Source: Methylobacter tundripaludum SV96 (GTDB lineage: Bacteria > Pseudomonadota > Gammaproteobacteria > Methylococcales > Methylomonadaceae). From it: a DNA stretch of 64,000 nucleotides. The translations under genes were made by a program, and so were the position numbers. The notes under the pieces are model-generated. The model did not search any database, had not been told where the DNA came from, and saw only the letters and a list, made by a program, of their open reading frames with translations. Shown here piece after piece: positions 37,546 to 58,517 of this stretch. The number at the start of each line of letters is the position of its first letter. Within the stretch, counting starts at the first letter, position 1. The stretch is from contig NZ_JH109153.1 of the NCBI RefSeq assembly GCF_000190755.2, positions 372,001-436,000 on the forward strand. Reading direction: 5' to 3'.

Positions 37546-38484
37546 TTATTCCGCAATGCCTTGCTTAAACCAGTTGTTGGATACCCGATCATGCAGTTCT
37601 CCCAACTTGTTTTGCAGGTCATCGAGAATTTCCCGTAATTGCGCCTGGGTCGTGTGCCGGGTATCGATGGCTTGCACATAAGCTTCCAGTTTAACGACCT
37701 CTTCCGGCAAGGCATCGTTATTCGGCAGGGCATTGATGCAGCCGGCAATTTCAGCGATGCAGCAGCTGACCGATCGGGGCAGGTTGGCGTTCAGTAATAG
37801 AAAATTAAGCACATCGTCACCGTTAACGCTGCTTCTGACATGTTGCCGATACATTAACTGGGCGTTGAGCGCCTTTAATATATTCACCCACAAAATAGTC
37901 TCGTATTGGCGCATTTCATCGCTGCGCGAATCGGCCAACAGCAAGGAGGCCAAATCCAGAATCCGGCTGGTCATGTCGGCGCGTTCAATATTCTTGCCCA
38001 AGCGAATGAATCGATAAGGATGATTGTGGCTCATATAGCCCGACAACAGCCCGGTAAATCGCTGACAGCCTTTGAGAATCTCGTTCAGGAACACGACGCG
38101 GTTGCTGCGGTTGTAGACCGAATCTCTATTATTTTTTACATACAGATACATTTCGTTGACCTGCTCCCAAGCCTCATCGGGCAGCAAGTCCCTCGAGGTA
38201 CGGATGTTTTCCCTGGCGGCGCTTAATGATGAAAACAAGGAGCCCGGATAAGTTTCGTCACTTAACAGAAATCGGGTAATGTTGTGTTCGTTGGCCGCGT
38301 TGTATTTTTCATAAAATTGCGGCTCCGAGGTATTGATACGGATCAGCTGCTGCCAACCCATTTCAACGCCGTTAGGTAAATCCATCAATAAATTCATATG
38401 CACACTGACCAATCTGGCGATATTTTCAGTGCGTTCAAGGTAACGTGCCAGCCAATACAGGCGTTCTGCTGAGCGGGATAACAT
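37546..38484 (-). CDS. Alpha-E domain protein (DUF403)
   Basis: The 312-residue all-helical protein starts LSRSAERLYWLARYLERTEN, the alpha-E signature also found at the junction of the fused protein at 47378-49939. Alpha-E proteins nearly always accompany circularly permuted ATP-grasp ligases, and are predicted to act with them in peptide or amide bond formation; no activity is settled. Its ATG overlaps the stop of the ATP-grasp gene by one base (TAATG), so the pair is translationally coupled. Confidence 0.92.
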   Translation of the reverse strand: MLSRSAERLYWLARYLERTENIARLVSVHMNLLMDLPNGVEMGWQQLIRINTSEPQFYEKYNAANEHNITRFLLSDETYPGSLFSSLSAARENIRTSRDLLPDEAWEQVNEMYLYVKNNRDSVYNRSNRVVFLNEILKGCQRFTGLLSGYMSHNHPYRFIRLGKNIERADMTSRILDLASLLLADSRSDEMRQYETILWVNILKALNAQLMYRQHVRSSVNGDDVLNFLLLNANLPRSVSCCIAEIAGCINALPNNDALPEEVVKLEAYVQAIDTRHTTQAQLREILDDLQNKLGELHDRVSNNWFKQGIAE

Positions 38485-39935
38485 TAGTTGTGCTCCATGT
38501 CGATGATCCAGGTGTCTTTGCTGCCGCCGCCTTGCGAGGAATTGACCACCAGCGAGCCTTTTTTTAGCGCTACCCGGGTTAAGCCTCCGGCAGTCACAAA
38601 GGTATTTTCGCCCTGCAAAATAAACGGCCGCAGATCGATGTGCCGGGGCTCAAGTTTACCTTTGCACAAAGTCGGTGCGGTAGAAATCGCCAAGGTCGGC
38701 TGGGCAATGTAATTACGGGGATTTTTTTGGATAATCTCCCGAAACTCTGCTATTTCTTTGTTGGTTGCATGCGGCCCTACCAACATGCCGTAGCCGCCCG
38801 ATTCATTGGCAGGTTTGACGACCAGCTCCGGCAAGTGCTTCAACACATATTCGAGGTGCTCCGGATTGTCGCACAGGTAAGTTTGCACATTAGGCAAGAT
38901 GGGTTCTTCGTTCAGGTAATAACGGATCATTTCCGGAACGTAGGCATAAACCACTTTGTCATCGGCGACACCCGCGCCCGGCGCATTAGCCAACGACACA
39001 TTACCGGCTTTCCAGGCGCGCATTAAGCCCGGAACGCCCAATGCGGAATCTTTTCGGAATACTTCGGGATCGAGAAAGTCATCGTCGATGCGCCGGTAAA
39101 TAACATCGACTTTTTCCAGTCCTTCGATGGTGCGCATATAGACGCAATCATCGTCATCGACCACCAGATCTCCGCCTTCGACCAGTTGCGCGCCCATTTG
39201 CTGGGCCAGATAAGCATGTTCAAAATAGGCCGAGTTATAAATGCCGGGCGTTAATACCACGATTTGCGGTTTGCTGATGTGCCCGGGCGCAAGCGACGCC
39301 AACATATCCTGCAAGCGGCTGGGGTAGTCGTCGATAGGCAAAATGTCTATGTTTTGCAAGAGCTCGGGGAATACGCGCTTGGTAATCACGCGGTTTTCCA
39401 GCATGTAGGAAACGCCCGAGGGTACCCGTAAATTATCTTCCAGCACGTACATAACGCCGTCTTTATCGCGTACCAAATCGGTGCCGCAAATGTTTGCCCA
39501 AACATTGTGGCGCGGTTTCATGCCGATACATTCTTTACGGAAGTTCTTTGAGCTATTGATGATCTCGGCAGGCATCTTGCCCGCTTTAATGAAGGCTTGT
39601 TCGTCGTAAACATCCGCTATAAAACAATTCAAGGCCGTCAAGCGTTGCTTTAAACCTTTTTCTATCATTCGCCATTCTGTAGAGCTGATGATGCGAGGGA
39701 TAATATCAAACGGCCAGGCCCGGTCTATGTTGCCCTCATCGCTGTAGACCGTGAAACTGATGCCCATTTCCAAAATGGCCAGTTCGGCAGCCATTTTGCG
39801 TTTATCGATATCGCTCGTATTGAGCGAATTTAAATATTGGCACAGACGGTAACTGATTTGCCTGGGTTGGAACTCAGAGCACATGAGTTCATCGTAAGCA
39901 CTATCGGTTTTGTAGTTTTCCCAGATTGATTTCAT
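38484..39935 (-). CDS. Circularly permuted ATP-grasp type 2 ligase (DUF404/DUF407)
   Basis: The 483-residue protein matches the circularly permuted ATP-grasp group: GIYNSAYFEHAYLAQQMG, VIYRRIDDDFLDPEVFR and the nucleotide-binding strand VVKPANESGGYGMLVG, with the terminal RPFILQGE segment and a Gly-rich loop SQGGGSKDTW near the C-terminus. Such enzymes are predicted to ligate an amine to a carboxylate in an ATP-dependent way. It is a stand-alone form; a fused paralogue with its own alpha-E domain is encoded at 47378-49939. It is divergent from the HPPD-like gene, with a 730-base repeat-rich gap between. Confidence 0.93.
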   Translation of the reverse strand: MKSIWENYKTDSAYDELMCSEFQPRQISYRLCQYLNSLNTSDIDKRKMAAELAILEMGISFTVYSDEGNIDRAWPFDIIPRIISSTEWRMIEKGLKQRLTALNCFIADVYDEQAFIKAGKMPAEIINSSKNFRKECIGMKPRHNVWANICGTDLVRDKDGVMYVLEDNLRVPSGVSYMLENRVITKRVFPELLQNIDILPIDDYPSRLQDMLASLAPGHISKPQIVVLTPGIYNSAYFEHAYLAQQMGAQLVEGGDLVVDDDDCVYMRTIEGLEKVDVIYRRIDDDFLDPEVFRKDSALGVPGLMRAWKAGNVSLANAPGAGVADDKVVYAYVPEMIRYYLNEEPILPNVQTYLCDNPEHLEYVLKHLPELVVKPANESGGYGMLVGPHATNKEIAEFREIIQKNPRNYIAQPTLAISTAPTLCKGKLEPRHIDLRPFILQGENTFVTAGGLTRVALKKGSLVVNSSQGGGSKDTWIIDMEHN

Positions 39936-40666
39936 GTTATTTCATAAGGCTAGTTGGCTTCAGTGAAAAAACAGCATGATTTGTGCCATTCTTATTTCGA
40001 GTGGAATTATCCGCATAATTCAATTTTGTGTACTTAGGGTTCCCACGCCCTGCGTCACCGCCATTAAGTTAATAAAAAACACTTAATAAACAAAATGTTG
40101 TTCCAGTATGGGGTGCCGTTCGCCCCAAAGGAATGGCAAGATTTTTCATGCGTCGCGAAAGGCGCGCACAGCACGCCCTACAACGGTTCAATTTGAGTGC
40201 TAGTTCCCAAGCTCCAGCTTGGGAATTCGGTGTGGGAAGCTCCAGCTTCCCGTCTCGCGAAGCTGCGACTACATGGATACAGGAGGTAGAGCAACGCAGG
40301 GAGCAGTTGCCGAGAGCTTCGTCATCCGGGTTCCCAAGCTGGTGGAGCTTGGGAACCCGCGTATTTCTTAACTTAATGGCAGTGTCGCCCTGCTCGGAAA
40401 CGATGAGTCCAGATGTCTGGAAGTTATTACCGACCCTGTCCTAAGCAACATGAAATGCGATGCCTGTTTTAAGGGTGATAACTACAGTAATGCCGCTTAA
40501 ATAACCCTATTTTGGACTTTATCCGCATCAATTTGGTGCAGCTTGAACTTTTAAATGACTCCTCCAACCGACGCATAGGAGTATCGCTTATATGATGCTG
40601 CCTGATTGTCTACTTGGTATGGCACTTGCTTTGCTTTTTAGAGATAAAACTTGTAAAGGACTCACT
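39936..40666. repeat. Repeat-rich gap upstream of the HPPD-like gene
   Basis: The stretch contains a REP arm (40159-40181), GTTCCCAAGCTCCAGCTTGG palindromes at 40203-40226 and 40330-40356, and GAAGCTCCAGCTTC at about 40233. A segment CAGGAGGTAGAGCAACGCAG (40280-40315) recurs at 42033-42067 on the other side of the HPPD-like gene. No gene is supported. Confidence 0.65.
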
Positions 40667-41923
40667 ATGCCAACCATTAGCCACTCTTTATCGTTCCCTG
40701 TTCAGGGTGACAAAGACAACTCATCCTTCTTTAATGATTACCTGGGCAAGTTGCTCGAAGAGCGCGATAGCTTGAACTTAAGCAACATGATTCATGAAAT
40801 CGATGCCATGATGCTGACCGTCGAGCCCGGAAAGTCGATTGAATACATCGGGGAACTCTGTCTGATGTCGCCTTACCATTATCTGGTCACCCTGGAAAGC
40901 GAGTCGCATTGGACCCACGTATTGCGCATTGATATGACGGCCCCGGACCTGATTATTCGTGAAGTGAAAAACGATGACACCAAGGGCATTTTTCGCAGCC
41001 TGAACGAAGTGTTCCCGATTGGTTCAAGCAAGCCGCACAGCCGTTATATGGGCGAAGTTCTGAGGGTAACCAACCGGCATGAAGTGGTTAAGTTGCAGCA
41101 GCAACGGGGCTTTTTGTTTTTCTCCCAGGATGATGTGCGTAAGCTGGAGCTGCCGGGCAACCTGGCGATCACCAAACCTTCTCCGTACACCCATAACATC
41201 GTCGCCTATCTGGAACGGGAACCCGAGGAGCCGCGCGTTTATGCATTGGGCGTCAGCAGTTTCCGTATCGATGCCCAACAAGCTTGCGAGCTTGCCAAAC
41301 AACAGCAAAAGGCATTAGGCATAGACGGCTTGATTTTACCGGTGGATCATTTGGCGACGCGTATTTACAGCCAAAACAGGGAAGTAGCGATTCTGGAATG
41401 GCTGTCATTATCCAGTTATTACTACTGGGGCTCGTTCGATATAGTCGACCAGAATTCATCGACCAATGTCACCAAAAGCATCCATTACACTGATGAGATG
41501 CACAGTCCGGCCAAGGTGTTCACCGCCAATAACACGCCTTATTTTGTCAATCATTTCAAAATATTCCCCTCGCCGACCGAGAACTTTGTGCGCAATTACG
41601 GGCCGAGATTGCACCATATTGCACTGGCGGTTAAAGACGGCAATCAGCAGGGGATGGAAAATATCGATTTTGTAGTCAACGCCATAAGCGAGCAAGGCAA
41701 AAGCTTTTTGCTGGATGTTGTGGGCTCCAAGGACGAAGGCTTAAAACAGATTTTTTCCAGCGCCTCCGAGCATTCGTCATTGATTATTGAGTATGTGCAG
41801 CGCTTTGGCGGTTTCCAGGGATTCTTTACCAAGGATAATGTCGCCGAACTAACCCATGCTGCGGGTGTCGAAGAAGAGTTGATGCGGATGCAGACCGAAG
41901 CGCAAAAACCTGTTCGGGTTTAA
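40667..41923 (+). CDS. HPPD-like VOC-family dioxygenase
   Basis: The start is the ATG at 40667 (AAAGGA upstream). The 418-residue protein has two VOC-like halves in its C-terminal 200 residues. The three iron ligands expected of 4-hydroxyphenylpyruvate dioxygenase are present: H228 (PVDHLATRI), H317 (LHHIAL) and E375 (LIIEYVQR), followed by the FGGFQGFFTKDN loop resembling HPPD's QGFGAGNFKSLF. The first 200 residues are unlike HPPD. It is therefore likely an Fe(II)-dependent, 2-oxoacid-using or related oxygenase of unknown substrate. Its position among ligase and protease genes, bracketed by direct repeats, is unusual. Confidence 0.8.
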   Translation: MPTISHSLSFPVQGDKDNSSFFNDYLGKLLEERDSLNLSNMIHEIDAMMLTVEPGKSIEYIGELCLMSPYHYLVTLESESHWTHVLRIDMTAPDLIIREVKNDDTKGIFRSLNEVFPIGSSKPHSRYMGEVLRVTNRHEVVKLQQQRGFLFFSQDDVRKLELPGNLAITKPSPYTHNIVAYLEREPEEPRVYALGVSSFRIDAQQACELAKQQQKALGIDGLILPVDHLATRIYSQNREVAILEWLSLSSYYYWGSFDIVDQNSSTNVTKSIHYTDEMHSPAKVFTANNTPYFVNHFKIFPSPTENFVRNYGPRLHHIALAVKDGNQQGMENIDFVVNAISEQGKSFLLDVVGSKDEGLKQIFSSASEHSSLIIEYVQRFGGFQGFFTKDNVAELTHAAGVEEELMRMQTEAQKPVRV

Positions 41924-42032
41924 TGGCTCGCCAATAACTACGCAATGGCTAAGAAATTTTCACCACGAACGACTGCACGGACAGATATTTGCTCCTGCAA
42001 TATCTGCATTCCCCACATCCATGTGGGTTATG

Positions 42033-42334
42033 CAGGAGGTAGAGCAACGCAGGAGCAGTTGCCGAGACACGAAGGTTTAAAGAACAAAGCGCTTCTTGAT
42101 CCCCTCGTTCCCACGCGCTGCGTGGGAATGCGATGCTGGACGCGCTGCGTCCCGTATACGCAAGACGTTGGTCGAGACTCGCGGCGCAGCGCGCCTTGAC
42201 TGCATTCCCACGCAGCGCGTGGGAACGAGAACACAGGGAATATTCGCTCGATCCCAAGCGCCAAGCTCCAGCTTCCCGAAACACAGAAAGCTTGAGCTTT
42301 CAGGACTGGGGTTCCCAAGCTGGAGCTTGGGAAC
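42033..42334. repeat. Repeat cluster between HPPD-like and DUF2126 genes
   Basis: The cluster starts with the second copy of the CAGGAGGTAGAGCAACGCAG unit (42033-42067), then CGTTCCCACG/CGTGGGAATG (42106-42130), its inverse (42203-42227), and GTTCCCAAGCTGGAGCTTGG (42311-42334). The segment 42140-42200 between the two CCCACG units carries CGCGCTGCGT-rich sequence also seen near 60650. No gene is supported in 41924-42382. Confidence 0.65.
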
Positions 42335-42382
42335 CAGCGCATACATTTGCAACGCCCAACACTTAGGCAATAGGAAAAAATC

Positions 42383-45300
42383 ATGACCATTCGAGTAGCT
42401 GTCCGTCACAAAACCGTATACAGCTTTGATAGACCGGTATCCCTGTCGCCGCATGTATTCAGGTTGCGCCCGGCGGTGCATAGCCGGACGCCGATTAAAG
42501 GCTATAGCTTGCGCATCAAACCTGAAAACCATTTCATCAACTGGCAGCAGGACCCGTTCGGCAACCTGCTGGCGCGAGTGGTGTTTCCGGAAAAATGCTC
42601 AACACTCAGTGTTGAGGTCGAAGTCATCGCCGAGTTGACCGTGATCAATCCCTTCGATTTCTTTGTTGAAGACTATGCAGAACAGTACCCGTTTAAATAC
42701 GACGCGCTATTGCTGAAAGAATTGCAGCCTTATCTGGAAATCACCGAGCAAGGTCCCTTACTCAAACGGTGGGTAGCCGATTTCGATCTAAGCAAACGTA
42801 ATATCAACGACTTTCTGGTTGACGTTAATCGCAAAGTTTTTCAGGCGATTAGCTACAACATCCGCATGGAAGTCGGCATCCAAAGCTGCGAGGAAACGCT
42901 GACTTCGCTCAGCGGTTCGTGCCGCGATTCGGCCTGGTTGCTGGTGCAAATACTCCGTCATTTGGGACTGGCTGCGCGGTTCGTTTCCGGTTATCTGGTG
43001 CAACTGACCGCCGACGTCAAATCGCTGGACGGCCCCTCCGGTCCTGAACAGGATTTCACCGACTTGCACGCCTGGACCGAAGTCTATATCCCCGGAGCCG
43101 GTTGGATAGGGCTTGATCCGACCTCCGGCTTACTGGCCGGGGAAGGACATATTCCCCTGGCCTGCACACCCGATCCCGCCAGTGCAGCGCCGGTCACCGG
43201 CGGCACCGATAAGTGCGAAGTGGCATTCGAATTCAGCAATACGGTAACCCGTTTGCACGAAGATCCGCGCGTCACCAAGCCTTATACCGATGACCAATGG
43301 CAGCGCATCGACGCGCTGGGCCAACAGGTTGACCGTCAATTATTGGCCGATGATGTGCGCTTGACCATGGGCGGCGAACCGACCTTTGTGTCCGTCGACG
43401 ACATGGAAGGCGCGGAGTGGAATGTCGATGCCGACGGCCCGCACAAACGCGAGCGGGCCAATGCGCTGACCAAACGCTTGCGCGATGAATTTGCAAAAGG
43501 CGCGATGCTGCATTACGGACAAGGCAAATGGTATCCGGGCGAAGCGTTGCCGCGCTGGCAATACGGTATTTTCTGGCGTAAAGACAGCACACCGATTTGG
43601 CGCAATCCCGAATTGCTGGCCGATATTACCAAGGATTACGGTCATACTTCTGAACACGCCGAATCGGTTATCAAGCAATTTACGTTACGCTTGGGCTTGC
43701 AACCGCGTTATATCAAAACCGCTTTTGAAGACAGTTTTTACTATCTCTGGCAGGAAGGCGGGCTTCCGGAAAATATCGATCCGTTAAAAAGCAACCTGAA
43801 GGATTCGATTGAACGCAAGACTTTGGCGCAGCTGCTGGATGCCGATTTAGGCAAAGCCGCAGGGTTTACCTTGCCGATAAAATGGGACTGGACCCATCAA
43901 AAATGGCAAAGCGGCCCCTGGAATTTTCGCCGCGGGCAGATGTTCTTGATTCCCGGCAACTCACCAATGGGGATGCGCTTGCCCTTAGGCAGTTTGCCTT
44001 GGGTTGCGCCGGACAAACGCGACACTCAGGAAGAACAAAGCCTGTTTGAGGCGCTGCCCGAGCTCGGCGATTATTACGGCGAAGTCACGCGCCGTTACAG
44101 CCATATCGAGAAAAAACTCAAGGCCCATCCCGAGATTACCGAGCAGGATTCAGGCGACGATCAAAGCGTCGAGGTGGAAGTGCCTCATACCGCAGTTTGC
44201 GTCGAAGCCCGCGAAGGCCGCGTGCATATATTCCTGCCGCCGCTGACTTCGCTGGAACATTATCTGGAATTGATTGCGGCCATTGAAGCCACCGCAGAAA
44301 ACCTGTCGATCCCGGTGGTGCTGGAAGGTTATGAGCCGCCGCGGGATTACCGCATCGAGCGCTTGATGGTAACGCCCGATCCCGGCGTGATCGAAGTCAA
44401 TATTCATCCGTCGAAAACTTGGCAAGAGTTGGTCGATAAAACCACCGTTCTTTATGAACACGCGCATCAGGTTAGATTGGGCACCGAAAAATTCATGCTT
44501 GACGGCCGCCATACTGGAACCGGCGGCGGCAACCATATCACCATGGGCGCCGAGACGCCGACCGACAGCCCGCTGTTGCGCCGTCCCGATTTGTTGCGCA
44601 GCTTGGTCACCTACTGGCAGCATCATCCCGGATTGTCGTACTTGTTTTCCGGCATGTTTATCGGCCCGACCAGCCAAGCGCCGCGGGTTGATGAAGGCCG
44701 CGACGAAAAGCTTTATGAACTGGAAATCGCCTTCCAGCAAATGCCGGAAGGCGAAGTGCCTGCGCCGTGGCTGGTGGATCGCTTGTTGCGGCATTTGCTG
44801 ACCGACATTACCGGCAACACGCACCGTTCCGAGTTCTGCATCGATAAACTGTATTCGCCGGACAGTTCGACCGGACGCTTGGGCATTCTGGAATTGCGCG
44901 CCTTTGAAATGCCCCCGCATGCCCGAATGTCGTTGGTGCAAACCTTACTATTGCGCTCGCTGATTGCCTGGTTTTGGCGCGAACCTTACAAACACGATTT
45001 AATCCGTTGGGGTACCGAATTGCACGACCGTTTTATGCTGCCGCATTATGTCCGGGAGGATATGAAGCAGGTCAGCAAAGATCTGCAACGAGCCGGGTAC
45101 GGTTTTGAACTGGAATGGCTGGAACCGTTTTTCGAGTTCCGCTTTCCCCGTTACGGCAATACTTTCATAGACGGCATCGACCTGGAAATGCGCTTTGCGA
45201 TTGAACCCTGGCACGTGTTGGGCGAGGAAGTCAGCAGCACCGGCACCGCGCGTTATGTGGATTCATCGGTGGAGCGCGTGCAGGTCAAGGTGACCGGTTT

Positions 45301-45769
45301 CACCGAAGGCCGCTATGTGTTGACCTGTAACGGCAGGCGCCTGCCGTTACGCAACACCGGCCGCAAGGGCGAATATGTCGCCGGTGTGCGTTACCGCGCC
45401 TGGCAACCGCCCTCCGCGCTGCATCCTACGATCAGCCCGCATGTACCGTTGGTGATCGATGTGATCGATACCTGGAACGGACATTCGGTGGGCGGCTGCA
45501 CTTATTATGTCTCCCATCCCGGCGGCCGAAGTTACGATGCATTCCCGGTGAATAGCTATGAAGCCGAGGCGCGGCGCGTCACCCGCTTTTGGGATTTCGG
45601 CCATACGCCCGGCATTATTACGCGCCCGCCCATGATAATGCCGACTGTTGCAGCGTCCGACGCGAAATTCAGCGTCAGCGAAGCCGTGCCGAGACCCATG
45701 TCTCCGCCCATTGAGGAGCTAAGTCACGAATATCCGTTTACAATGGACTTGCGGCATCGGAGCGGGTAA
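42383..45769 (+). CDS. Transglutaminase-like / DUF2126 fusion protein
   Basis: The protein has 1128 residues. Residues 1-270 are a bacterial transglutaminase-like domain with an N-terminal beta region (HKTVYSFDRPVSLSPH) and an intact triad: C180 (SLSGSCRDSAW), H229 (LHAWTEVY), D245 (WIGLDPTSG). The remaining 850 residues match DUF2126, which is predicted to be a carboxylate-amine ligase related to glutamine-synthetase-like enzymes (TMGGEPTFVS at residue 330, TGTGGGNHITMG later). Transglutaminase, ligase and ATP-grasp genes together point to peptide or protein conjugation. No signal peptide is seen, so it acts in the cytosol. The biochemistry is unknown. Confidence 0.92.
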   Translation: MTIRVAVRHKTVYSFDRPVSLSPHVFRLRPAVHSRTPIKGYSLRIKPENHFINWQQDPFGNLLARVVFPEKCSTLSVEVEVIAELTVINPFDFFVEDYAEQYPFKYDALLLKELQPYLEITEQGPLLKRWVADFDLSKRNINDFLVDVNRKVFQAISYNIRMEVGIQSCEETLTSLSGSCRDSAWLLVQILRHLGLAARFVSGYLVQLTADVKSLDGPSGPEQDFTDLHAWTEVYIPGAGWIGLDPTSGLLAGEGHIPLACTPDPASAAPVTGGTDKCEVAFEFSNTVTRLHEDPRVTKPYTDDQWQRIDALGQQVDRQLLADDVRLTMGGEPTFVSVDDMEGAEWNVDADGPHKRERANALTKRLRDEFAKGAMLHYGQGKWYPGEALPRWQYGIFWRKDSTPIWRNPELLADITKDYGHTSEHAESVIKQFTLRLGLQPRYIKTAFEDSFYYLWQEGGLPENIDPLKSNLKDSIERKTLAQLLDADLGKAAGFTLPIKWDWTHQKWQSGPWNFRRGQMFLIPGNSPMGMRLPLGSLPWVAPDKRDTQEEQSLFEALPELGDYYGEVTRRYSHIEKKLKAHPEITEQDSGDDQSVEVEVPHTAVCVEAREGRVHIFLPPLTSLEHYLELIAAIEATAENLSIPVVLEGYEPPRDYRIERLMVTPDPGVIEVNIHPSKTWQELVDKTTVLYEHAHQVRLGTEKFMLDGRHTGTGGGNHITMGAETPTDSPLLRRPDLLRSLVTYWQHHPGLSYLFSGMFIGPTSQAPRVDEGRDEKLYELEIAFQQMPEGEVPAPWLVDRLLRHLLTDITGNTHRSEFCIDKLYSPDSSTGRLGILELRAFEMPPHARMSLVQTLLLRSLIAWFWREPYKHDLIRWGTELHDRFMLPHYVREDMKQVSKDLQRAGYGFELEWLEPFFEFRFPRYGNTFIDGIDLEMRFAIEPWHVLGEEVSSTGTARYVDSSVERVQVKVTGFTEGRYVLTCNGRRLPLRNTGRKGEYVAGVRYRAWQPPSALHPTISPHVPLVIDVIDTWNGHSVGGCTYYVSHPGGRSYDAFPVNSYEAEARRVTRFWDFGHTPGIITRPPMIMPTVAASDAKFSVSEAVPRPMSPPIEELSHEYPFTMDLRHRSG

Positions 45770-45847
45770 TACCAACAAGTGCGCCGATGTGGCTGGTTCC
45801 CAAGCTCAAGCTTCGCGTGTCGGGAAGCTGGAGCTTCCAAGACGTGG

Positions 45848-45952
45848 GTTCCCAAGCTGGAGCTTGGGAACCAGCAGATAAACATGAGCCGCGTAGGGTA
45901 CGCTGTGCGTACCATTGACTGCCAAAGGTACGCACAGCGTACCCTACGCGGC
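45848..45952. repeat. Palindromes between DUF2126 and citrate synthase genes
   Basis: GTTCCCAAGCTGGAGCTTGG (45848-45871) is followed by a perfect 26-bp inverted repeat: 45888-45913 (starting GCCGCGTAGGGTACGCTGTG) and 45927-45952, with a 13-base loop. Confidence 0.8.
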
Positions 45953-46003
45953 TAAATAAAATTAACTGATAAATCGTGCCATCCGCTTTGGAGATTGATT
46001 CAA

Positions 46004-47308
46004 ATGACCGATAAATTAAAACAACTACCCCCGGCCATATTGACGCTGGATGATAAAAGTTACTCACTGCCCACTTTGATAGGGGCCGAGGGCGAAAAAG
46101 CCATCGACATTTCCAAATTACGCAGTCAAAGTCATTACGTGACCCTGGATGAAGGCTATGGCAATACCGCCAGCTGCGAAAGCGCCATCACCTATATTGA
46201 CGGCGAGAAAGGCATACTGCGTTATCGCGGTTACCCTATTGAGGAACTGGCCGAACATTCGCGTTTTGTTGAAGTCGCCTATCTGCTGCTGAATGGCGAG
46301 CTGCCTAACAGCCAACAATTATTGGAGTTTTCTACCAACCTTAATGAGTCTTCGATTATTCATGAAGACATGCATCATTTTTTTAACGGCTTTCCGCGCG
46401 GCTCGCACCCGATGGGTATTTTGGCGACCATGGTGGCGTCGTTATCCACGTTCTACCCGATTCCCGACCGGCTTGATACGGCGACGGAACAACAGATCGT
46501 TATCAACTTGATCTCCCAGGTGCGTACTATCGCGGCTTTTTCTTACAAGAAATCGATCGGCGAACCGCTGGTTTATCCGTCCTACAAGCTTAAGTATGTG
46601 CGCAACTTCCTGAACATGATGTTTTCATCGCCGGTGCGTGATTATCAATTGGATGACGACATTGTCAGAGCCATCGATATGTTCCTGATCCTGCATGCCG
46701 ACCATGAGCAAAATTGCAGCACCTCTTCGGTGCGCACCGCGGGCTCCAGTATGGCGAACGTGTATGCGGTGGCTTCGGCGGGCATTTCGGCGCTTTGGGG
46801 GCCGCGCCATGGCGGAGCCAATCAGCAAGTGATACAGATGCTTGAACAAATACATGCCGACGGCGGCGACGGCACTGAATTCATCAACCAGGCGAAAGAC
46901 AAAAACTCGTCAAGCCGACTGATGGGTTTCGGCCATCGCGTCTATAAGAATTTCGATCCGCGCGCAACGGTATTAAAGAAACAATGCGACAAATTATTCG
47001 ATAAAGCCGGCGTCAGCGATCCTTTGTTCGATATTGCCCGGAAACTGGAAGAAATTGCCTTAAAGGACGATTATTTCATCTCCCGAAAACTGTATCCGAA
47101 TGTCGATTTTTATTCCGGGTTGATTCTCCGGGCCGCGGGCATACCGACCAATATGTACACGGTATTATTCGCTATCGGCCGCATGCCCGGCTGGCTGGCC
47201 CACTGGCGGGAAATGCTGCACGGCGAGCAAGTGATCATTACCCGCCCCCGTCAGATCTATGTAGGCGAGCCGTTACGTCGCTATCAAGATATTGAACAAC
47301 GGCCTTAG
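46004..47308 (+). CDS. Citrate synthase (type II)
   Basis: The start is the ATG at 46004 (GGAG ten bases upstream). The 434-residue protein carries the family motifs: a catalytic His in LHADHEQNCSTSSVRTAGSS, GFGHRVYKNFDPRA with another catalytic His, and the terminal RPRQIYVGEPLR that binds citrate/CoA. It has the NADH-sensitive type II length. It condenses oxaloacetate and acetyl-CoA in the cytosol. Being within the ligase/protease run is odd: 70 bases separate it from the ATP-grasp fusion gene. Whether it is the housekeeping enzyme or a dedicated paralogue supplying a tricarboxylate substrate cannot be told here. Confidence 0.96.
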   Translation: MTDKLKQLPPAILTLDDKSYSLPTLIGAEGEKAIDISKLRSQSHYVTLDEGYGNTASCESAITYIDGEKGILRYRGYPIEELAEHSRFVEVAYLLLNGELPNSQQLLEFSTNLNESSIIHEDMHHFFNGFPRGSHPMGILATMVASLSTFYPIPDRLDTATEQQIVINLISQVRTIAAFSYKKSIGEPLVYPSYKLKYVRNFLNMMFSSPVRDYQLDDDIVRAIDMFLILHADHEQNCSTSSVRTAGSSMANVYAVASAGISALWGPRHGGANQQVIQMLEQIHADGGDGTEFINQAKDKNSSSRLMGFGHRVYKNFDPRATVLKKQCDKLFDKAGVSDPLFDIARKLEEIALKDDYFISRKLYPNVDFYSGLILRAAGIPTNMYTVLFAIGRMPGWLAHWREMLHGEQVIITRPRQIYVGEPLRRYQDIEQRP

Positions 47309-47377
47309 AAAAAGCATGGTCAATTCTTTTGGTGGATTCATTATTGGAAACAACCTAAACAGCAACAAGGTCTCATC

Positions 47378-49939
47378 GTGAACGAATCAACCGGCGATAT
47401 TGGCGCGCAGTTTTACGCCACCCAACTTGGCGTTTACGATGAAATGCTCGCCAAAGAACATAAAGTGCTGCCTTATTGGGAGCGCTTTATGGACGCCATT
47501 GCAACGCTGGGTAGCGAACAACTGGAGTTGCGCCGCCGCGAAGCCCAGCGCCTGTTGCGGGAAAACGGCGTCACTTACAATGTTTACGGCGATACGCAAA
47601 AGCTCACCCGGCCCTGGCGGCTCGACCCTGTTCCGCTGCTGATCAGCAGTGAAGATTGGTCGCTTATTGAAGCGGGCCTTAAACAACGCGCCGAGCTGCT
47701 CAACCTGATTTTGAAAGACATCTACGGCAAGCAACAACTGTTGAAAAAAGGCCTGCTGCCCAGCGAACTGGTGTTGGCGCACGACGGTTTTTTGCATCCC
47801 TGTGTGGGCGCCCTGCCCCATCTGCAACGCGAGCTGATTGTTTATTCGGCCAACCTTGCCCGTGGTCAGAACGGCCGCATGCTGGTATTGGATGACCGCA
47901 GCCAGGCGCCTTCCGGCGCCGGTTATGCGTTGGAAAATCGCACGGTGATGACACGGGTGCTCCCGGACATTTTCCGCGAAACGCAAGTGCATCGGCTGTC
48001 CGGTTTTTTTAAGGCCCTGCGCAAGGGACTGGCCGATATTGCGCCGCATAATAAAGAAGATCCGCGGATTGTGATACTCACGCCGGGTTCTCTTAACGAA
48101 ACCTATTTTGAGCACGCCTATTTATCGTCTTATCTCGGTTTTTCACTGGTACAAGGCGACGACCTGACGGTACGCGACGGCCGGGTCTGGCTTAAATCGC
48201 TGGACGGCCTGCAACCGGTCGACGTTATCTTGCGGCGCGTTGACGATTCGTTCTGCGACCCGCTGGAATTGCGCAGCGCGTCCCGGCTGGGCGTTGCCGG
48301 ATTGCTCGAAGCCGTGCGCCGAAACAATGTGGCGATTGCCAATCCGCTGGGCAGCAGCGTTCTGGAAAATCCGGGACTATTGGCCTTTTTACCCCGGCTC
48401 TCGCGGTATTTTTTAAACCAGGAATTGATACTGCCTTCGGTTGCCACGTGGTGGTGCGGTCAGCGCCGCGAACGGGATTTTGTGCTGCAAAACCTTGATC
48501 GGCTGATTATTAAACCGATCAATCGCAGTTCGGGGAATTACGCCCTGTTCGGCGGCCTGTTAAGCGCCAAGGAAAAAGAACTTTTACGTGCCGCCATTAT
48601 CGCCAAACCGCATTGTTATGTCGGCCAGGAGCATGTCAGTTTTTCTACCGTGCCCTCGTTTATCGACCACCATATCGAGCCGCGGTTTGCGGTATTGCGG
48701 AGCTTTGCGGTTGCCAGCGGCGACGACTATCAAGTGATGCCCGGCGGTCTGACCCGGATTGCCCGCCAGCAGGACGATTTTATTGTGTCGAATCAGGCCG
48801 GCGGCATCAGTAAAGACACCTGGGTGTTGGCGGATGAACCGGACAAGCAGGTCAGTTTGTGGTTTCAGCCCGGCCGGGATGTGGTCTTGGCTGCGGACAC
48901 CGAACCCTTGACCAGTCGCGCTGCCAATAACCTGTTTTGGGTTGGACGCTACCTGGAGCGTATCAAAGCGGCGACTCGCTTGATGCGCACGATATTGCTC
49001 AAATTAGCGGAAGCCCCGGAACTTAACGATCCGCTCGACAGCCAGTGCCTCGATGTATTATTGAGCGCCCTGACTCAGGTAACCGGCACCTATCCGGGCT
49101 TTGTTACCAGCAATGCGTCGGTGTTAAAAGAGCCCCAAAATGAGTTACTGGCGCTCGCTAAAAATGTCCAGCGCTCCGGCACGCTGGCGGCCAACATCCA
49201 AGCCTTTGCCCAAACCGCCTTCAGTATCCGCGATGTCTGGTCGCAGGATACCTGGCGCTGCGTCGATAATATTCAACGGCGCTGGCAACAACGGGTCGTG
49301 AACGGCGATTGCGATCTGGAACAACTGCAAAAACACCTGGACGATTTAATTACCGGCTTTGTCGCATTTATCGGCTTGACCACCGAGAGCATGACTCGCG
49401 AAGCAGGTTGGCTGATGCTGGATAGCGGCCGTCGCCTGGAGCATTCACTGACATTGATCGCGTTGCTGCGCGCCACGGTGGTGCAGCGTCATGAGTCGGC
49501 ATTGCAAAACCAGCTGCTGGAAGCGGTGTTGATCTCCACCGACAGTTTGAGCATTTACCGCCGCCGCTACCGCTCATTTATCAAATTGCCGATGGTGCTG
49601 GAATTATTGCTGATGGATGAAACGCATCCCCGTTCGCTGGCTTATCAGTTACATCAATTATCCGACCATATCGGTGCATTGCCGAGGGAACGCGGCAAGG
49701 GGCAATTGAGCGAGGAAGAACGTTTAATACTCAAGGCTTACACCGACCTGCGCTTGGTCAAAGTGTCCGAGTTGGTTAACGTTGCTGACGATGTCGGCGT
49801 TTACAGTGAGCTGGAAAGCGTTTTGTCGGCGATGACGGAACTGTTATGGCGGCTTTATGAAGTGCTTGCTCAAGCTTATTTCAGCCATTCTCAAGTGCCG
49901 CAATTGATGACGCCGACGCAACCGGAGGATGATCTGTGA
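47378..49939 (+). CDS. Fused circularly permuted ATP-grasp / alpha-E protein
   Basis: The start is GTG at 47378 with AAGG seven bases upstream. The 853-residue protein contains the ATP-grasp module in residues 1-480 (TPGSLNETYFEHAYLSSYLG, VILRRVDDSFCDPLEL, LIIKPINRSSGNYALFGG) and an alpha-E module from about 510 (NLFWVGRYLERIKAATRL). It is thus a single-chain version of the pair encoded at 37546-39935. The stop overlaps the next gene's GTG start. Having both the split and fused forms suggests two ligases with different substrates or a sequential pathway; that is inference. Confidence 0.93.
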   Translation: MNESTGDIGAQFYATQLGVYDEMLAKEHKVLPYWERFMDAIATLGSEQLELRRREAQRLLRENGVTYNVYGDTQKLTRPWRLDPVPLLISSEDWSLIEAGLKQRAELLNLILKDIYGKQQLLKKGLLPSELVLAHDGFLHPCVGALPHLQRELIVYSANLARGQNGRMLVLDDRSQAPSGAGYALENRTVMTRVLPDIFRETQVHRLSGFFKALRKGLADIAPHNKEDPRIVILTPGSLNETYFEHAYLSSYLGFSLVQGDDLTVRDGRVWLKSLDGLQPVDVILRRVDDSFCDPLELRSASRLGVAGLLEAVRRNNVAIANPLGSSVLENPGLLAFLPRLSRYFLNQELILPSVATWWCGQRRERDFVLQNLDRLIIKPINRSSGNYALFGGLLSAKEKELLRAAIIAKPHCYVGQEHVSFSTVPSFIDHHIEPRFAVLRSFAVASGDDYQVMPGGLTRIARQQDDFIVSNQAGGISKDTWVLADEPDKQVSLWFQPGRDVVLAADTEPLTSRAANNLFWVGRYLERIKAATRLMRTILLKLAEAPELNDPLDSQCLDVLLSALTQVTGTYPGFVTSNASVLKEPQNELLALAKNVQRSGTLAANIQAFAQTAFSIRDVWSQDTWRCVDNIQRRWQQRVVNGDCDLEQLQKHLDDLITGFVAFIGLTTESMTREAGWLMLDSGRRLEHSLTLIALLRATVVQRHESALQNQLLEAVLISTDSLSIYRRRYRSFIKLPMVLELLLMDETHPRSLAYQLHQLSDHIGALPRERGKGQLSEEERLILKAYTDLRLVKVSELVNVADDVGVYSELESVLSAMTELLWRLYEVLAQAYFSHSQVPQLMTPTQPEDDL

Positions 49940-50880
49940 AATACCGCATTACCCACAGCACTCTTTACAAATACAGCCAGTTGGTCGGCCTGTGCCAGAA
50001 TGAAGCGCGATTGCAGCCCCGCGATTTCTGGCGTCAGCAATGTCAAAGCAGCCGCTTTGACATTAGCCCCGAGCCTAACGACTTTCACGAACGCAGGGAT
50101 TTTTTCGGCAATCGTGTCGCTTATTTCGCCATACAACAAGCGCATCAACGCTTGGTGGTCACTGCCGTGAGTGAAGTCACGGTATTTCCCAGGCAAAACC
50201 GTGACGATTTGGCTAATTTAATAACTTGGGAGCAGGCACGCGACCAGTTGCAAGGAGGGCCAGGCCCCGGACAATCACAAGTGCAATCGCAGTCTCAATC
50301 GCAAAGCCAGTCTCAGCAGCAAGATGGCTATGACGAGCTACTGGATGCCAAGCTGTTTCTGCTGGACTCGCCGATGGTCGTCACCAGCGACGAACTGGCT
50401 AATTACGCACAAAGCTCCTTTTTGCCCAATCGGCCGCTGGTGCAGGTAGTGACGGATTTGATGCAGCGCATCCATGCCGATTTCACTTACGATCCGAGCA
50501 GTACCACGATTGCCACGCCGTTATCCGACGTGCTGCAATTTCGCCGCGGCGTATGCCAGGATTTTGCCCACCTGGCGATCGGTTGCTTGCGTTCCTTCGG
50601 TATTGCCGCGCGTTACGTCAGCGGCTATGTGGAAACGCAGCCGGTGCCGGGCAAGCAGCGTTTGGTCGGGGCGGATGCGTCACATGCCTGGTTTGCAGTG
50701 TATGTGCCGGGTACCGGTTGGCTGGAGTTCGACCCAACCAATAATGCGGTGCCGTTCGATCAGCATATCACCTTGGCTTGGGGACGCGACTACACGGATG
50801 TCACTCCGCTAAAGGGCATTGCCTTTGGCGGGGGGCAGCATACCTTGTCGGTGTCGGTGGATGTGCTTAGATTGGAATAA
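49936..50880 (+). CDS. Transglutaminase-like cysteine protease family protein (second)
   Basis: The protein has 314 residues from a GTG that overlaps the previous stop (GTGA). The N-terminal transglutaminase-like region (HSTLYKYSQLVGLCQNEARL) is followed by a low-complexity Gln-Ser stretch (about residues 113-128, alternating QS) and the catalytic core with C207 (RRGVCQDFAHLAI), H250 (SHAWFAVY) and D266 (WLEFDPTN). These proteins are predicted papain-like peptidases or transamidases that work with the ATP-grasp/alpha-E partners. The Ser-Gln tract is an expansion and could vary in length between strains. Confidence 0.93.
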   Translation: MKYRITHSTLYKYSQLVGLCQNEARLQPRDFWRQQCQSSRFDISPEPNDFHERRDFFGNRVAYFAIQQAHQRLVVTAVSEVTVFPRQNRDDLANLITWEQARDQLQGGPGPGQSQVQSQSQSQSQSQQQDGYDELLDAKLFLLDSPMVVTSDELANYAQSSFLPNRPLVQVVTDLMQRIHADFTYDPSSTTIATPLSDVLQFRRGVCQDFAHLAIGCLRSFGIAARYVSGYVETQPVPGKQRLVGADASHAWFAVYVPGTGWLEFDPTNNAVPFDQHITLAWGRDYTDVTPLKGIAFGGGQHTLSVSVDVLRLE

Positions 50881-50979
50881 CAAACACCTCTGCTAAGCGC
50901 CGGGCGTGTTGGACGTTGGCGTTGCTTTATTGGATAATGGCCTGAAAGTATCTTTAAACACCACAATCGAACGTTTTTT

Positions 50980-51735
50980 ATGACTTATTGTATTGCCGCT
51001 TCTATAGATGAAGGACTTATCCTGGTTTCCGACTCAAGGACCAATGCCGGTATTGATAACGTCAGTACTTACGGCAAAATGCATGCATTTAAAACCAACG
51101 ATGACCGCAAGATTGTTTTATTGTGCGCCGGTAATCTTGCTACCACTCAAGCGGTTTTGGAGCAGCTGCACCGCGATAAAATCAAGAATGCCGGCGTCAA
51201 TATCAATAATGTGGAGTGCTTGTCCGAGGCGGCTGCCTATCTGGGCCATGTCAGCGTCGAAAAACAAAAACAACACGTTAATTCCGAAGGACAATCGGCA
51301 TTTAATCCTTCGGCCAGTTTTATTTTAGCTGGTCAAATCGGCGATGAGCCGCACGGCGCTTATATGGTTTATGCGGAAGGCAACAGCATAACCAGTTCAG
51401 CCAATACGCCGTTTTTACAAATCGGCGAGAGTAAATACGGCAAGCCGATACTGGACCGTTTTCTTAAATTGAACACCTCAATCGACGAAGCGGCGCGCTG
51501 CTGTTTGGTGTCGATGGACTCGACCATCCGCAGTAATGCCAGCGTCGGGCCGCCGGTAGAAATGCTCATTTACCGCAAAAACAGTTTCAGCTTTGACGAG
51601 TATTATTGCTTTGACGGCGATGACGATTATTTGTTGCAACTTCGGCGCAGCTGGGAAGCCAAGCTCCGTGAAGCGATAGGCGCATTGCCCAGTCTCAATA
51701 AAGAAGCGGTTAAGGTCATGCGGGTTGATTTGTAG
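50980..51735 (+). CDS. Proteasome-type peptidase Anbu (HslV-like)
   Basis: The 251-residue protein begins MTYCIAASIDEGLILVSDSR, the Anbu (ancestral beta subunit) N-terminus. After Met removal Thr2 is the likely nucleophile of the Ntn-hydrolase fold; Lys in the TYGKMH segment and the D of SDSRTNAG occupy the usual positions. Anbu forms open, lock-washer-like assemblies and has little proven proteolytic activity. It is usually encoded next to the transglutaminase, ATP-grasp and alpha-E genes, as here. The 99-base gap after the transglutaminase gene holds no clear terminator, so the two are likely in one operon. Confidence 0.93.
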   Translation: MTYCIAASIDEGLILVSDSRTNAGIDNVSTYGKMHAFKTNDDRKIVLLCAGNLATTQAVLEQLHRDKIKNAGVNINNVECLSEAAAYLGHVSVEKQKQHVNSEGQSAFNPSASFILAGQIGDEPHGAYMVYAEGNSITSSANTPFLQIGESKYGKPILDRFLKLNTSIDEAARCCLVSMDSTIRSNASVGPPVEMLIYRKNSFSFDEYYCFDGDDDYLLQLRRSWEAKLREAIGALPSLNKEAVKVMRVDL

Positions 51736-56992: not shown

Positions 56993-57697
56993 ATGAGCGC
57001 TATTCATTTTATCGGCGGCGAAAAAGGCGGCGTAGGCAAGTCCGTCGTAGCCCGTGTGCTGGCTCAATACATGATAGACAACGAAATACCGTTTATCGGT
57101 TTCGACACGGACCGTTCGCATGGTTCCTTGCTGCGTTTTTATACCGACTATGCATCGCCTACCGTCATTGATCATTACCAAAGTCTGGATGCGATTATGG
57201 AGACGGCCTTAGCGAATCCGGGGCAGCGCATCCTGGTTGATCTCGCAGCCCAAACCCATCATCCGCTGGCAAAATGGATCGATGAATCCGGCGTGCTGGA
57301 ACTGGCGGAAGAGTTGGGAATTGCCCTGTACTACTGGAATGTGATGGACTCCGGCAAGGATTGCGTGGATTTGCTCGGCAAACTGCTCGATCAATACGGC
57401 TCTCGATTGAATTACATACTGGTACAGAACCAGCTTCGCGACGACAGCTTCGCTCTTTTAGAATCGTCAGGCGTTAAAGAGCGTGCCTTGGCGTTGAATG
57501 CCGGGGTGATGACATTGAAGCGGCTGCATTCGCCGGTAATGACCAAGATTGACGGCAACAGCTCCAGTTTTTGGGCAGCAACAAACAAGGATACCGAAAG
57601 CCTGAACGCCTTGGGTTTATTGGAGCGGCAACGCGTCAAAATATGGCTGAGACACGCCTACAGCCAGATTCAATCGGTGGGACTTTTATGCGAGTAG
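56993..57697 (+). CDS. ParA/MinD-like P-loop ATPase
   Basis: The 234-residue protein has the deviant Walker A motif GGEKGGVGKSVVARVLAQYM at residues 8-27 and the short Walker A' FDTDRSHG, then an acidic ILVDLAAQT strand. The C-terminal third is not close to ParA partition proteins. It lacks the membrane-targeting helix of MinD. The transglutaminase-like gene follows 25 bases later, so the two probably form an operon. Similar orphan P-loop ATPases serve as regulators or loaders; the role here is unknown. AATGGAGAAAC precedes the ATG. Confidence 0.85.
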   Translation: MSAIHFIGGEKGGVGKSVVARVLAQYMIDNEIPFIGFDTDRSHGSLLRFYTDYASPTVIDHYQSLDAIMETALANPGQRILVDLAAQTHHPLAKWIDESGVLELAEELGIALYYWNVMDSGKDCVDLLGKLLDQYGSRLNYILVQNQLRDDSFALLESSGVKERALALNAGVMTLKRLHSPVMTKIDGNSSSFWAATNKDTESLNALGLLERQRVKIWLRHAYSQIQSVGLLCE

Positions 57698-57722: not shown

Positions 57723-58517
57723 ATGAAATTGGGTGTTAGTTGCAATCTTCATTTCCAGCTGGACGCCCCGACGGTGTTAATTTTAATGCTGCGCCCCTTG
57801 AACGGTATACAGCAATGGATTACAAAATCCAGTTATGTTGTCGAGCCTGACGTGCCGATAATCGAGAGCAAAGACAACTACGGCAATTCCTGTCAACGGC
57901 TGGTTGCTCCGCCCGGAGAATTTATTATTCGTACCTCTGCCGAGGTCATCACGGCTGAATATATAGATAGCGCACCTGGCGCGCATTTTATTGAGATCCA
58001 GAATCTTCCTTATCAAATCCTGCCTTATCTGTTACCCAGCCGCTATTGCGAATCGGACCGATTTGGCGATCTTGCCAGAGAGATAGTGAGCGATGCACTG
58101 CCGGGTTACGATCAGGTCGGCAAAATTACTGATTGGGTTCGCCGCTCCATCCAATATATTCCAGGTTCCAGCGATTTGCCGCTGTCGGCGATTGAAGTTC
58201 ATAACCGCGGCTATGGCGTTTGCAGGGATCTTGCGCAACTCGCCATCGCACTGTGCCGAAGTATCAGCATACCTGCGCGACTGGTGGTAGGGTATTTGTA
58301 TCAGCTTGAACCGATGGACTTGCATGCCTGGTTTGAGGCCTATATCGGCGATCGATGGTATGCTTTCGATGCCACTCAGGGCGATTTACGCGGCGGCAGG
58401 GTGATTATTGCTTTTGGACGCGATGCTGCCGATGTTTCGATATTTCATCAATTCGGCTTGGGTTGTATTTTGAAGGGCATGGATGTTCAGGTTAATTTGC
58501 TGAACAAGTCCCTGTAA
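57723..58517 (+). CDS. Transglutaminase-like protein (third copy)
   Basis: The 264-residue protein has its catalytic residues at C167 (RGYGVCRDLAQLAI), H201 (LHAWFEAY) and D216 (WYAFDATQG). Its N-terminal domain (residues 1-130) differs from those of the two others in the window and begins with a beta-rich YQILPYLLPSRYCESD section. It is downstream of a ParA-like ATPase in probable operon order. It probably takes part in the same chemistry as the neighbouring Anbu-linked genes, or in a parallel branch; its substrate is unknown. Confidence 0.92.
   Translation: MKLGVSCNLHFQLDAPTVLILMLRPLNGIQQWITKSSYVVEPDVPIIESKDNYGNSCQRLVAPPGEFIIRTSAEVITAEYIDSAPGAHFIEIQNLPYQILPYLLPSRYCESDRFGDLAREIVSDALPGYDQVGKITDWVRRSIQYIPGSSDLPLSAIEVHNRGYGVCRDLAQLAIALCRSISIPARLVVGYLYQLEPMDLHAWFEAYIGDRWYAFDATQGDLRGGRVIIAFGRDAADVSIFHQFGLGCILKGMDVQVNLLNKSL

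What the first reader, a model, noticed from the sequence alone, without database searches (positions are those of the whole stretch)
37546..51735. A doubled Anbu-linked ligase/protease cluster
Within 14 kb there are a split ATP-grasp/alpha-E pair, a fused ATP-grasp/alpha-E protein, a transglutaminase-DUF2126 fusion, a second transglutaminase and the proteasome-like Anbu. The association of these families is known and predicted to build or recycle peptide tags, but no pathway is established. Having both a split and a fused ligase in one cluster implies two different ligation steps, or a recent duplication with divergence. This is the strongest candidate for an uncharacterised biochemical system in the window.
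Basis: partly seen in the sequence, partly recalled or inferred. Interest (0 to 1): 0.8.

Follow-up and report, generated by a model that had tools for sequence, protein, structure and literature searches.

The report
Amide-ligase cluster with a pseudo-ligase
The cluster is a known type of predicted bacterial peptide-making or peptide-tagging locus, but its two look-alike ligases are an ancient pair of which one keeps and the other has lost the residues normally needed to use ATP, so they are probably a working enzyme and a non-working partner rather than two working ligases.

Summary
In detail: every named protein is there at those coordinates. The set is a known kind, the predicted peptide-tagging network of Anbu, Alpha-E, circularly permuted ATP-grasp and DUF2126. 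What is new is the meaning of the doubling. (1) Split and fused forms are not recent copies (37% identical in ATP-grasp, 23% in Alpha-E) but two clades, each one side of a single branch in both domain trees. (2) All 78 split proteins examined keep the classical ATP-grasp residues; of 124 fused proteins, from several phyla, none keeps the metal-site Asn (115 have Arg) or the Asp of the D-x-R motif, and one keeps the DK lysine. The fused form is probably a pseudo-ligase. (3) It hardly ever lacks the split form: 93 of 94 fused-bearing genomes have both. (4) Elsewhere the split pair usually goes with Anbu and the fused form with transglutaminase-DUF2126; here both modules are interleaved, and the locus runs on to 58.5 kb with a third transglutaminase and a P-loop protein. 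(5) Sigma-54-like sites are enriched before the split ligase across relatives, the window included. Substrate and product are unknown.

The parts
37546..38484 (-). Alpha-E protein, partner of the split ATP-grasp
   Evidence: PF04168 E 6.5e-83; split clade of the Alpha-E tree
38484..39935 (-). Split circularly permuted ATP-grasp, all classical ATP/metal residues kept; probable working ligase
   Evidence: PF14403 E 4.1e-169; solved relative 3n6x E 4.5e-159; residues
39973..39988 (-). Sigma-54-like promoter site TGGCACAAATCATGCT, 53 nt before the split ATP-grasp start codon
   Evidence: score 10 of 12; position; enrichment before this gene in relatives
40620..40635 (+). Sigma-54-like site TGGCACTTGCTTTGCT before the 443-aa ORF (an in-frame ATG lies at 40667)
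   Evidence: score 11 of 12; position
40592..41923 (+). 443-aa ORF of unknown function, found in 10 of the 81 stretches (window and 80 loci) examined, beside the split pair or transglutaminase-DUF2126
   Evidence: no Pfam match at E 0.001, Glyoxalase_4 only at E 0.1; PDB best E 0.86
42383..45769 (+). Transglutaminase-DUF2126 fusion (putative amidoligase), Cys-His-Asp triad present
   Evidence: Pfam; triad; weak fold match to glutamine synthetase and YbdK
45995..47308 (+). Citrate synthase, second copy in the genome (51% identical to the other), in the cluster only within this bacterial family
47378..49939 (+). Fused ATP-grasp/Alpha-E; most classical ATP and metal residues lost; probable pseudo-ligase
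   Evidence: Pfam; trees; residues; AlphaFold model
49936..50880 (+). Transglutaminase of the fused-gene type (TG-B), overlapping the fused gene's stop
   Evidence: Pfam; tree; triad
50980..51735 (+). Anbu, with Thr1, Asp17 and Lys32 after removal of Met
   Evidence: residues read from the translation against those named in PMC6376114
56993..57697 (+). P-loop (GGVGKS) protein found next to a transglutaminase in 11 stretches, all of this family; no Pfam match at E 0.001
57723..58517 (+). Third transglutaminase (TG-C), a separate clade usually beside Anbu in relatives
   Evidence: PF01841 E 1.5e-23; tree, 12 rows, SH-aLRT 99; gene orders

Best explanation
The locus joins two old modules of one amide-bond system. 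Module A: a working ATP-grasp ligase (split) with its Alpha-E partner, normally with Anbu. Module B: a transglutaminase-DUF2126 protein, a fused ATP-grasp/Alpha-E protein and its transglutaminase. The split enzyme activates a carboxylate with ATP and makes an amide bond (inferred; ATP hydrolysis to phosphate is reported in print for the Yersinia relative). The fused protein no longer uses ATP in the usual way: it keeps much of the conserved core, has swapped metal- and nucleotide-binding residues for its own conserved set, and works as a non-catalytic partner of the split ligase, binding substrate or product and passing it on to, or tuning, DUF2126 and the transglutaminases (inferred). DUF2126 is the best candidate for a second ligase (weak support). 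Transglutaminases and Anbu remodel or hydrolyse the product (inferred). Control by sigma-54, probably with NtrC at nitrogen shortage, is supported for the split gene (promoter enrichment here; regulon data in print for Pseudomonas putida and Burkholderia cenocepacia).
For: Residues: 78 of 78 split keep all six classical residues; of 124 fused, N168 is kept in 0, D434 in 0, K327 in 1, E166 in 3, against D153 in 98 and K374 in 88. The fused clade has its own conserved replacements (N168R 93%, R170Q 90%, S176G 100%, S235E 92%, D325E 98%), so the site was rebuilt rather than left to decay. One branch parts fused from split in both domain trees. Fused hardly ever without split: 45 of 45 in 139 genomes, 23 of 23 in 61 relatives (one genome shared with the former), 26 of 27 in genomes of other phyla. 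Fused lies within 10 kb of DUF2126 in 39 of 40 genomes with both; split within 10 kb of Anbu in 52 of 61. Split and fused lie within 15 kb in 17 of 45 genomes, 13 families, 0.29 expected by random placement. The other enzymes keep their catalytic residues: transglutaminase Cys 45/45, 45/45, 13/15, 12/12 in four clades. Promoters: score at least 10 before split ATP-grasp in 24 of 61, control ORFs 18 of 781, fused 1 of 46. Print: PMC6376114, PMC7801951, PMC5491218 (passages).
Against: Loss of activity is inferred from sequence; the window's fused protein keeps the Lys of the nucleotide loop (K379), has Asp for Glu at the metal site, and 88 of 124 keep that Lys, so altered ATP use is not excluded. 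No physical contact between split and fused was tested. Pull-downs in print found no specific complex of Anbu with its operon partners (PMC6376114), and the 2017 Structure paper argues for protein breakdown rather than peptide synthesis (PMC5666114). Co-occurrence counts are not corrected for relatedness. 39 of 84 split-bearing genomes lack the fused form, so the split enzyme can act without it. The DUF2126 model is poor (pLDDT 68). In the window alone neither sigma-54 nor NtrC patterns exceed chance.
Confidence: 0.55

Rival explanations
1. The fused protein is an active ligase with changed chemistry: the conserved Arg replaces a metal ion, and the two ATP-grasp proteins do carry out two different ligation steps.
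For: The replacements are conserved (N168R in 115 of 124, S176G in 124 of 124, D325E in 121 of 124); D153 (98 of 124), K374 (88 of 124) and R436 (123 of 124) are mostly kept; the fold is kept (3n6x TM-score 0.88 by target length).
Against: The metal-site Asn, the D of D-x-R and the DK pair are lost together, and the glycine-rich loop is not conserved (G380 in 11, G381 in 37 of 124). The fused form evolves faster (mean identity between families 42% against 57%, lower in 731 of 735 pairs).
Confidence: 0.2
2. The two modules are independent nitrogen-starvation functions that sit together only because they share regulation or travel together.
For: In 28 of 45 genomes with both, split and fused were not found within 15 kb, draft contigs included; both the split gene and transglutaminase-DUF2126 show more sigma-54-like sites than control ORFs (24 of 61 and 8 of 44 against 18 of 781).
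Against: The dependence is one-sided: 0 of 139 genomes have fused without split, 39 have split without fused. Shared regulation alone predicts no such nesting.
Confidence: 0.15
3. A protein-tagging and breakdown system: ligases attach a peptide or amino-acid tag to proteins, and Anbu and the transglutaminases remove it or degrade the target.
For: Predicted in the literature for this gene set (discussed in PMC6376114 and PMC5666114; the 2009 source itself is recalled). Anbu, ligases and transglutaminases share the locus.
Against: No small ORF in the neighbourhoods recurs in more than two bacterial families (2666 small ORFs compared), so a gene-encoded tag was not found; 23 of 84 split-bearing genomes have no Anbu match; Anbu showed no peptidase activity on standard substrates in print.
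Confidence: 0.25

Closest known systems
Anbu operon (ATP-grasp, Alpha-E, transglutaminase, Anbu), as in Pseudomonas and Yersinia
   Same: Same families; the split pair is the operon's ligase type (split-Alpha-E-transglutaminase-Anbu order in loci L068, L071, L072, L100, L108 and others).
   Different: Here Anbu follows the fused gene's transglutaminase, the split pair is divergent and without the operon's usual transglutaminase, and module B is interleaved.
Predicted peptide-tagging network of Iyer et al. 2009 (ATP-grasp, glutamine-synthetase-like ligase, Ntn peptidase, alpha-helical domain; recalled, not held)
   Same: The component families are all present.
   Different: The split/fused pair read here as ligase and pseudo-ligase; whether that paper already noted the loss could not be checked.
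Solved CP-ATP-grasp 3n6x (Methylobacillus flagellatus) and the eukaryotic-type glutathione synthetase / glutathionylspermidine synthetase fold
   Same: Split and fused ATP-grasp domains both match 3n6x (E 9.2e-238 and 8.6e-137); the fused model matches glutathione synthetases and E. coli Gss (2io7).
   Different: The fused clade lacks most of the metal and nucleotide residues of these enzymes (ligand roles in Gss recalled).
Burkholderia cenocepacia I35_5080-5083 cluster (PMC5491218)
   Same: ATP-grasp, Alpha-E, transglutaminase and a large transglutaminase-domain protein in one NtrC/sigma-54-dependent cluster (passages).
   Different: No fused ATP-grasp/Alpha-E or Anbu is named there in the passages seen; its sequences were not examined.

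Membership tests
Circularly permuted ATP-grasp family (split protein) | Family match and classical ATP-grasp residues (DK, Lys plus glycine loop, D..E-x-N metal site, D-x-R) | tested here: met
   PF14403 E 4.1e-169; all residues kept in 78 of 78 split proteins. Roles of the motifs recalled; E. coli Gss shows R316, D318, E330, N332, K498, K533 in a comparable order.
Working ATP-grasp ligase (fused protein) | Same catalytic residues | tested here: not met
   Window fused: N, D, R, P, K, V at D153, E166, N168, K327, K374, D434; 124 fused proteins keep 0 to 3 of the six.
ATP-grasp fold (fused protein) | Fold | tested here: met
   AlphaFold pLDDT 86.6, pTM 0.85; 3n6x E 3.4e-33.
Alpha-E family (both) | Pfam match and R-x-x-E-R motif | tested here: met
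   R14/E17/R18 kept in 60, 60, 59 of 60 split and R524/E527/R528 in 46, 45, 46 of 46 fused.
Anbu | Sequence match to solved Anbu; Thr1, Asp17, Lys32(33) | tested here: met
   residues by eye in the translation, residue list from PMC6376114.
Anbu | Peptidase or amidase activity | not testable with these tools
   None detected in print for the Yersinia, Hyphomicrobium and Pseudomonas proteins (passages).
Glutamine-synthetase-like amidoligase (DUF2126) | Carboxylate-amine ligase fold | tested here: inconclusive
   Model pLDDT 68.2; glutamine synthetase 8fbp E 0.0023 and YbdK 1r8g E 0.0079 with TM-scores of 0.31 and 0.33 by target length.
Bacterial transglutaminases (three in the window) | Cys-His-Asp triad | tested here: met
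   Cys 45/45 (TG-B), 45/45 (DUF2126-linked), 12/12 (TG-C); His 45/45, 45/45, 11/12; Asp all.
NtrC/sigma-54 regulon | Sigma-54 promoter and NtrC sites before the operon | tested here: inconclusive
   Sigma-54-like sites enriched before split ATP-grasp (24 of 61 against 18 of 781 controls, p 5e-19, related genomes not corrected); NtrC pattern not above chance in the window (31 against 30.95).
Peptide-tagging system | A tag and a modified target | not testable with these tools
   No recurrent small ORF found.

The most novel reading that the evidence does not exclude
The fused protein is a pseudo-ligase whose ATP site was rebuilt into a metal-free pocket, kept across phyla as an obligate partner of the working split ligase: it senses or hands over the ligase's product to DUF2126, so the system is a two-enzyme relay joined by a dead ligase.
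Probability: 0.35. Interest if true: 0.7.

Novelty: new member of a known kind. Interest (0 to 1): 0.5.

Why it matters
The function of Anbu and its ligase neighbours has stayed open since they were described. If one of the two ligases is a pseudoenzyme tied to the other, assays that look for two ATP-grasp activities look in the wrong place: the testable set becomes one split ATP-grasp ligase, one DUF2126 ligase, a pseudo-ligase that may link them, and transglutaminases. The near-perfect nesting (fused almost never without split) gives a simple genetic prediction, and the promoter evidence names a growth condition, nitrogen shortage, in which to look for the product.

Tried and rejected
Recent duplication: rejected. 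Two ATP-grasp ligases: disfavoured. A gene-encoded peptide tag: 2666 small ORFs compared, best cluster two families. Profile comparison of the split family with E. coli Gss gave nothing (hhalign probability 0.1), so residue matching to Gss is by motif order only. Pattern scans of the window for sigma-54 and NtrC sites alone were not above chance. PDB sequence search of the 443-aa ORF found nothing useful. The foldseek list for DUF2126 also holds toxin entries at probability 0.09 or less, read as chance. Whether the loss in the fused clade is already in print: searches (listings) showed no such report; the 2009 source paper was not held.

Limits and corrections. Split or fused in genome searches is told from open-frame length (780 aa or more = fused); from profile matches. 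In one search I left out three matches below the Pfam cut-off (G062 C37, G169, G081). In one search G028 (two fragments, one with an internal stop) and two sub-cut-off matches (G003, G007) were not counted as split or fused. 25 of 61 split and 23 of 45 fused rows of the first set come from the window's own family. The second fused set was found with a pattern that includes the Gly at S176, so S176G is partly forced there; N168, K327 and D434 were not in the patterns. My notebook says that no fused protein of 45 keeps E166 and that all 124 lack K327; searches show that one of 45 (3 of 124) keeps E166 and 1 of 124 keeps K327. The numbers 45 (genomes with both) and 45 (fused rows, or genomes with both) belong to different sets. 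Alignment A3 held a mistaken short row and was replaced by A4.
Full report
What is there. The window holds a divergent pair, Alpha-E (37546-38484) and ATP-grasp (38484-39935) on the minus strand, then on the plus strand a 443-aa ORF, transglutaminase-DUF2126, a citrate synthase, a fused ATP-grasp/Alpha-E protein, a transglutaminase and Anbu. About 5 kb further, past a glucokinase and a large glycosyl hydrolase-type protein, lie a P-loop protein and another transglutaminase (57723-58517). The genome has no other CP-ATP-grasp or Alpha-E match and one more citrate synthase (51% identical). The contig is unnamed; the window's genus and family are known here only as codes.

Old paralogues, not copies. 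The two ATP-grasp domains are 36.7% identical and the two Alpha-E domains 23%. Trees of 106 ATP-grasp and 106 Alpha-E domains from the window and 80 fetched loci each part split from fused by one branch, SH-aLRT 100; both trees are quick searches and some fused rows have long branches. Across 735 pairs of genomes of different families, drawn from 45 genomes with both forms, mean identity is 57.4% for split and 41.8% for fused, lower for fused in 731. Four transglutaminase groups separate likewise: after the fused gene (45 rows), inside DUF2126 proteins (45), after Alpha-E (15; two changes on the tree) and a fourth group near Anbu (12, including the window's at 57.7 kb).

Two modules. In 139 Pseudomonadota genomes (counted), 84 have a split ATP-grasp, 45 a fused one, 43 DUF2126 and 62 Anbu. 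Fused and DUF2126 occur together in 40 (3 and 5 alone) and lie within 10 kb in 39 of the 40. Anbu occurs with split in 61 of 62 and within 10 kb in 52 of 61; with fused within 10 kb in only 6 of 27. So Anbu belongs with the split pair and DUF2126 with the fused gene. Both modules lie within 15 kb of each other in 17 of 45 genomes from 13 families, against 0.29 expected from random placement on genomes of those sizes. In the window's own family the interleaved arrangement with the divergent split pair recurs in 10 of the stretches read, the window included; citrate synthase appears in the cluster in 18 stretches, all of this family.

Nesting. None of the 139 genomes has fused without split, while 39 have split without fused. 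In 61 closer relatives, 23 genomes have fused and all 23 have split (the window's genome is in both sets). I then searched the genomes of the 27 loci, of 80, whose titles name groups outside Pseudomonadota (Bacteroidota, Verrucomicrobia, Planctomycetes, Acidobacteria, Actinomycetes, Chloroflexi, Poribacteria and Desulfuromonadales by title): 26 of 27 also hold a split copy; the exception is a Planctomycetaceae MAG in some 1700 pieces. Together 93 of 94 genomes. Relatedness was not corrected for.

The fused ligase has lost its ATP site. Against 78 split proteins (61 and 17), every one of which keeps D153, E166, N168, D325-D326-K327, K374, G380-G381, D434, R436 and N465, the 124 fused proteins (45 and 79) keep D153 in 98, E166 in 3, N168 in 0, D325 in 1, D326 in 0, K327 in 1, K374 in 88, G380 in 11, G381 in 37, D434 in 0, R436 in 123 and N465 in 0. 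Per protein, of the six residues D153, E166, N168, K327, K374 and D434, the fused keep none in 3, one in 53, two in 67 and three in 1; the split keep six in 78. By recalled family knowledge these are the metal-site D..E-x-N, the DK and K-glycine-loop nucleotide residues and the D of D-x-R; E. coli Gss, read from its own gene, has R316, D318, E330, N332, K498 and K533 in a comparable order, though a profile comparison with Gss failed. The losses are not random: N168 became Arg in 115 and His in 7, and R170Q, S176G, S235E and D325E are each at least 90%. Much of the core stays, among it R98, D108, R182, E239, R281, R282, D289, N317, R436 and D474. The AlphaFold model of the fused protein is good (pLDDT 86.6), and its nearest solved folds are 3n6x and glutathione or glutathionylspermidine synthetases. 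The transglutaminases and, by eye, Anbu keep their catalytic residues. In the fused Alpha-E half the first R-x-x-E-R motif stays but several split-specific residues (N93, D170, R174) are mostly gone.

Regulation. Before the split ATP-grasp start, sites matching the sigma-54 consensus at 10 or more of 12 positions occur in 24 of 61 genes, against 18 of 781 control ORFs (p 5e-19), 1 of 46 fused genes, 1 of 60 Alpha-E and 8 of 44 transglutaminase-DUF2126 genes. The window has such sites before the split gene and before the 443-aa ORF. Control ORFs are mechanical, 25 of 61 split rows are from one family, and scans of the window alone are at chance. In print, the Pseudomonas putida operon PP_2685-2688 rises under nitrogen limitation and is attributed to NtrC (PMC7801951 and PMC8050072, passages), and the Burkholderia cluster is NtrC/sigma-54-dependent (PMC5491218, passages).

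Mechanism. Shown here: clades, residue loss, co-occurrence, linkage, promoter enrichment. Shown in print: phosphate release from ATP by the Yersinia operon's ATP-grasp, no Anbu peptidase activity and no stable complex with Anbu (PMC6376114, abstract and passages). Inferred: the split enzyme is the ATP-grasp ligase; DUF2126 may be a second ligase (weak); the fused protein is a non-catalytic partner. Against: some ATP-site residues survive in many fused proteins, and 39 genomes run the split module alone. The 2017 Structure paper (PMC5666114, passages) prefers protein breakdown to peptide synthesis.

Verdict. A member of a known, still unexplained kind of locus. The doubling is real and old, but the likely reading is ligase plus pseudo-ligase, not two ATP-grasp steps. 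Searches found no earlier report of this (listings), but the key 2009 paper could not be read.

Noticed in passing
57723-58517 (+) and 56993-57697 (+): A third transglutaminase of a separate clade and a P-loop protein; relatives place both near Anbu and the fused gene's transglutaminase, so the locus reaches beyond the given range.
   Followed up: partly
45995-47308 (+): A second citrate synthase kept between transglutaminase-DUF2126 and the fused gene in stretches of this bacterial family only; its link to the ligases is unexplained.
   Followed up: partly
40592-41923 (+): 443-aa ORF of unknown function with a sigma-54-like site near its start; weak hint (E 0.1) of a glyoxalase/dioxygenase-type domain.
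   Followed up: partly
L066:14719-15909 and relatives in 6 genomes of 6 families: A zinc-ribbon plus putative zinc metallopeptidase (Peptidase_Mx, PF15887) recurs near these clusters in other bacteria.
   Followed up: partly
L120, L143, L149, L152, L155, L157, L176: Same-strand gene order split ATP-grasp, Alpha-E, transglutaminase-DUF2126, fused, seen in one Poribacteria MAG and several Gammaproteobacteria, with a transglutaminase after it except in L120, where the contig ends.
   Followed up: no
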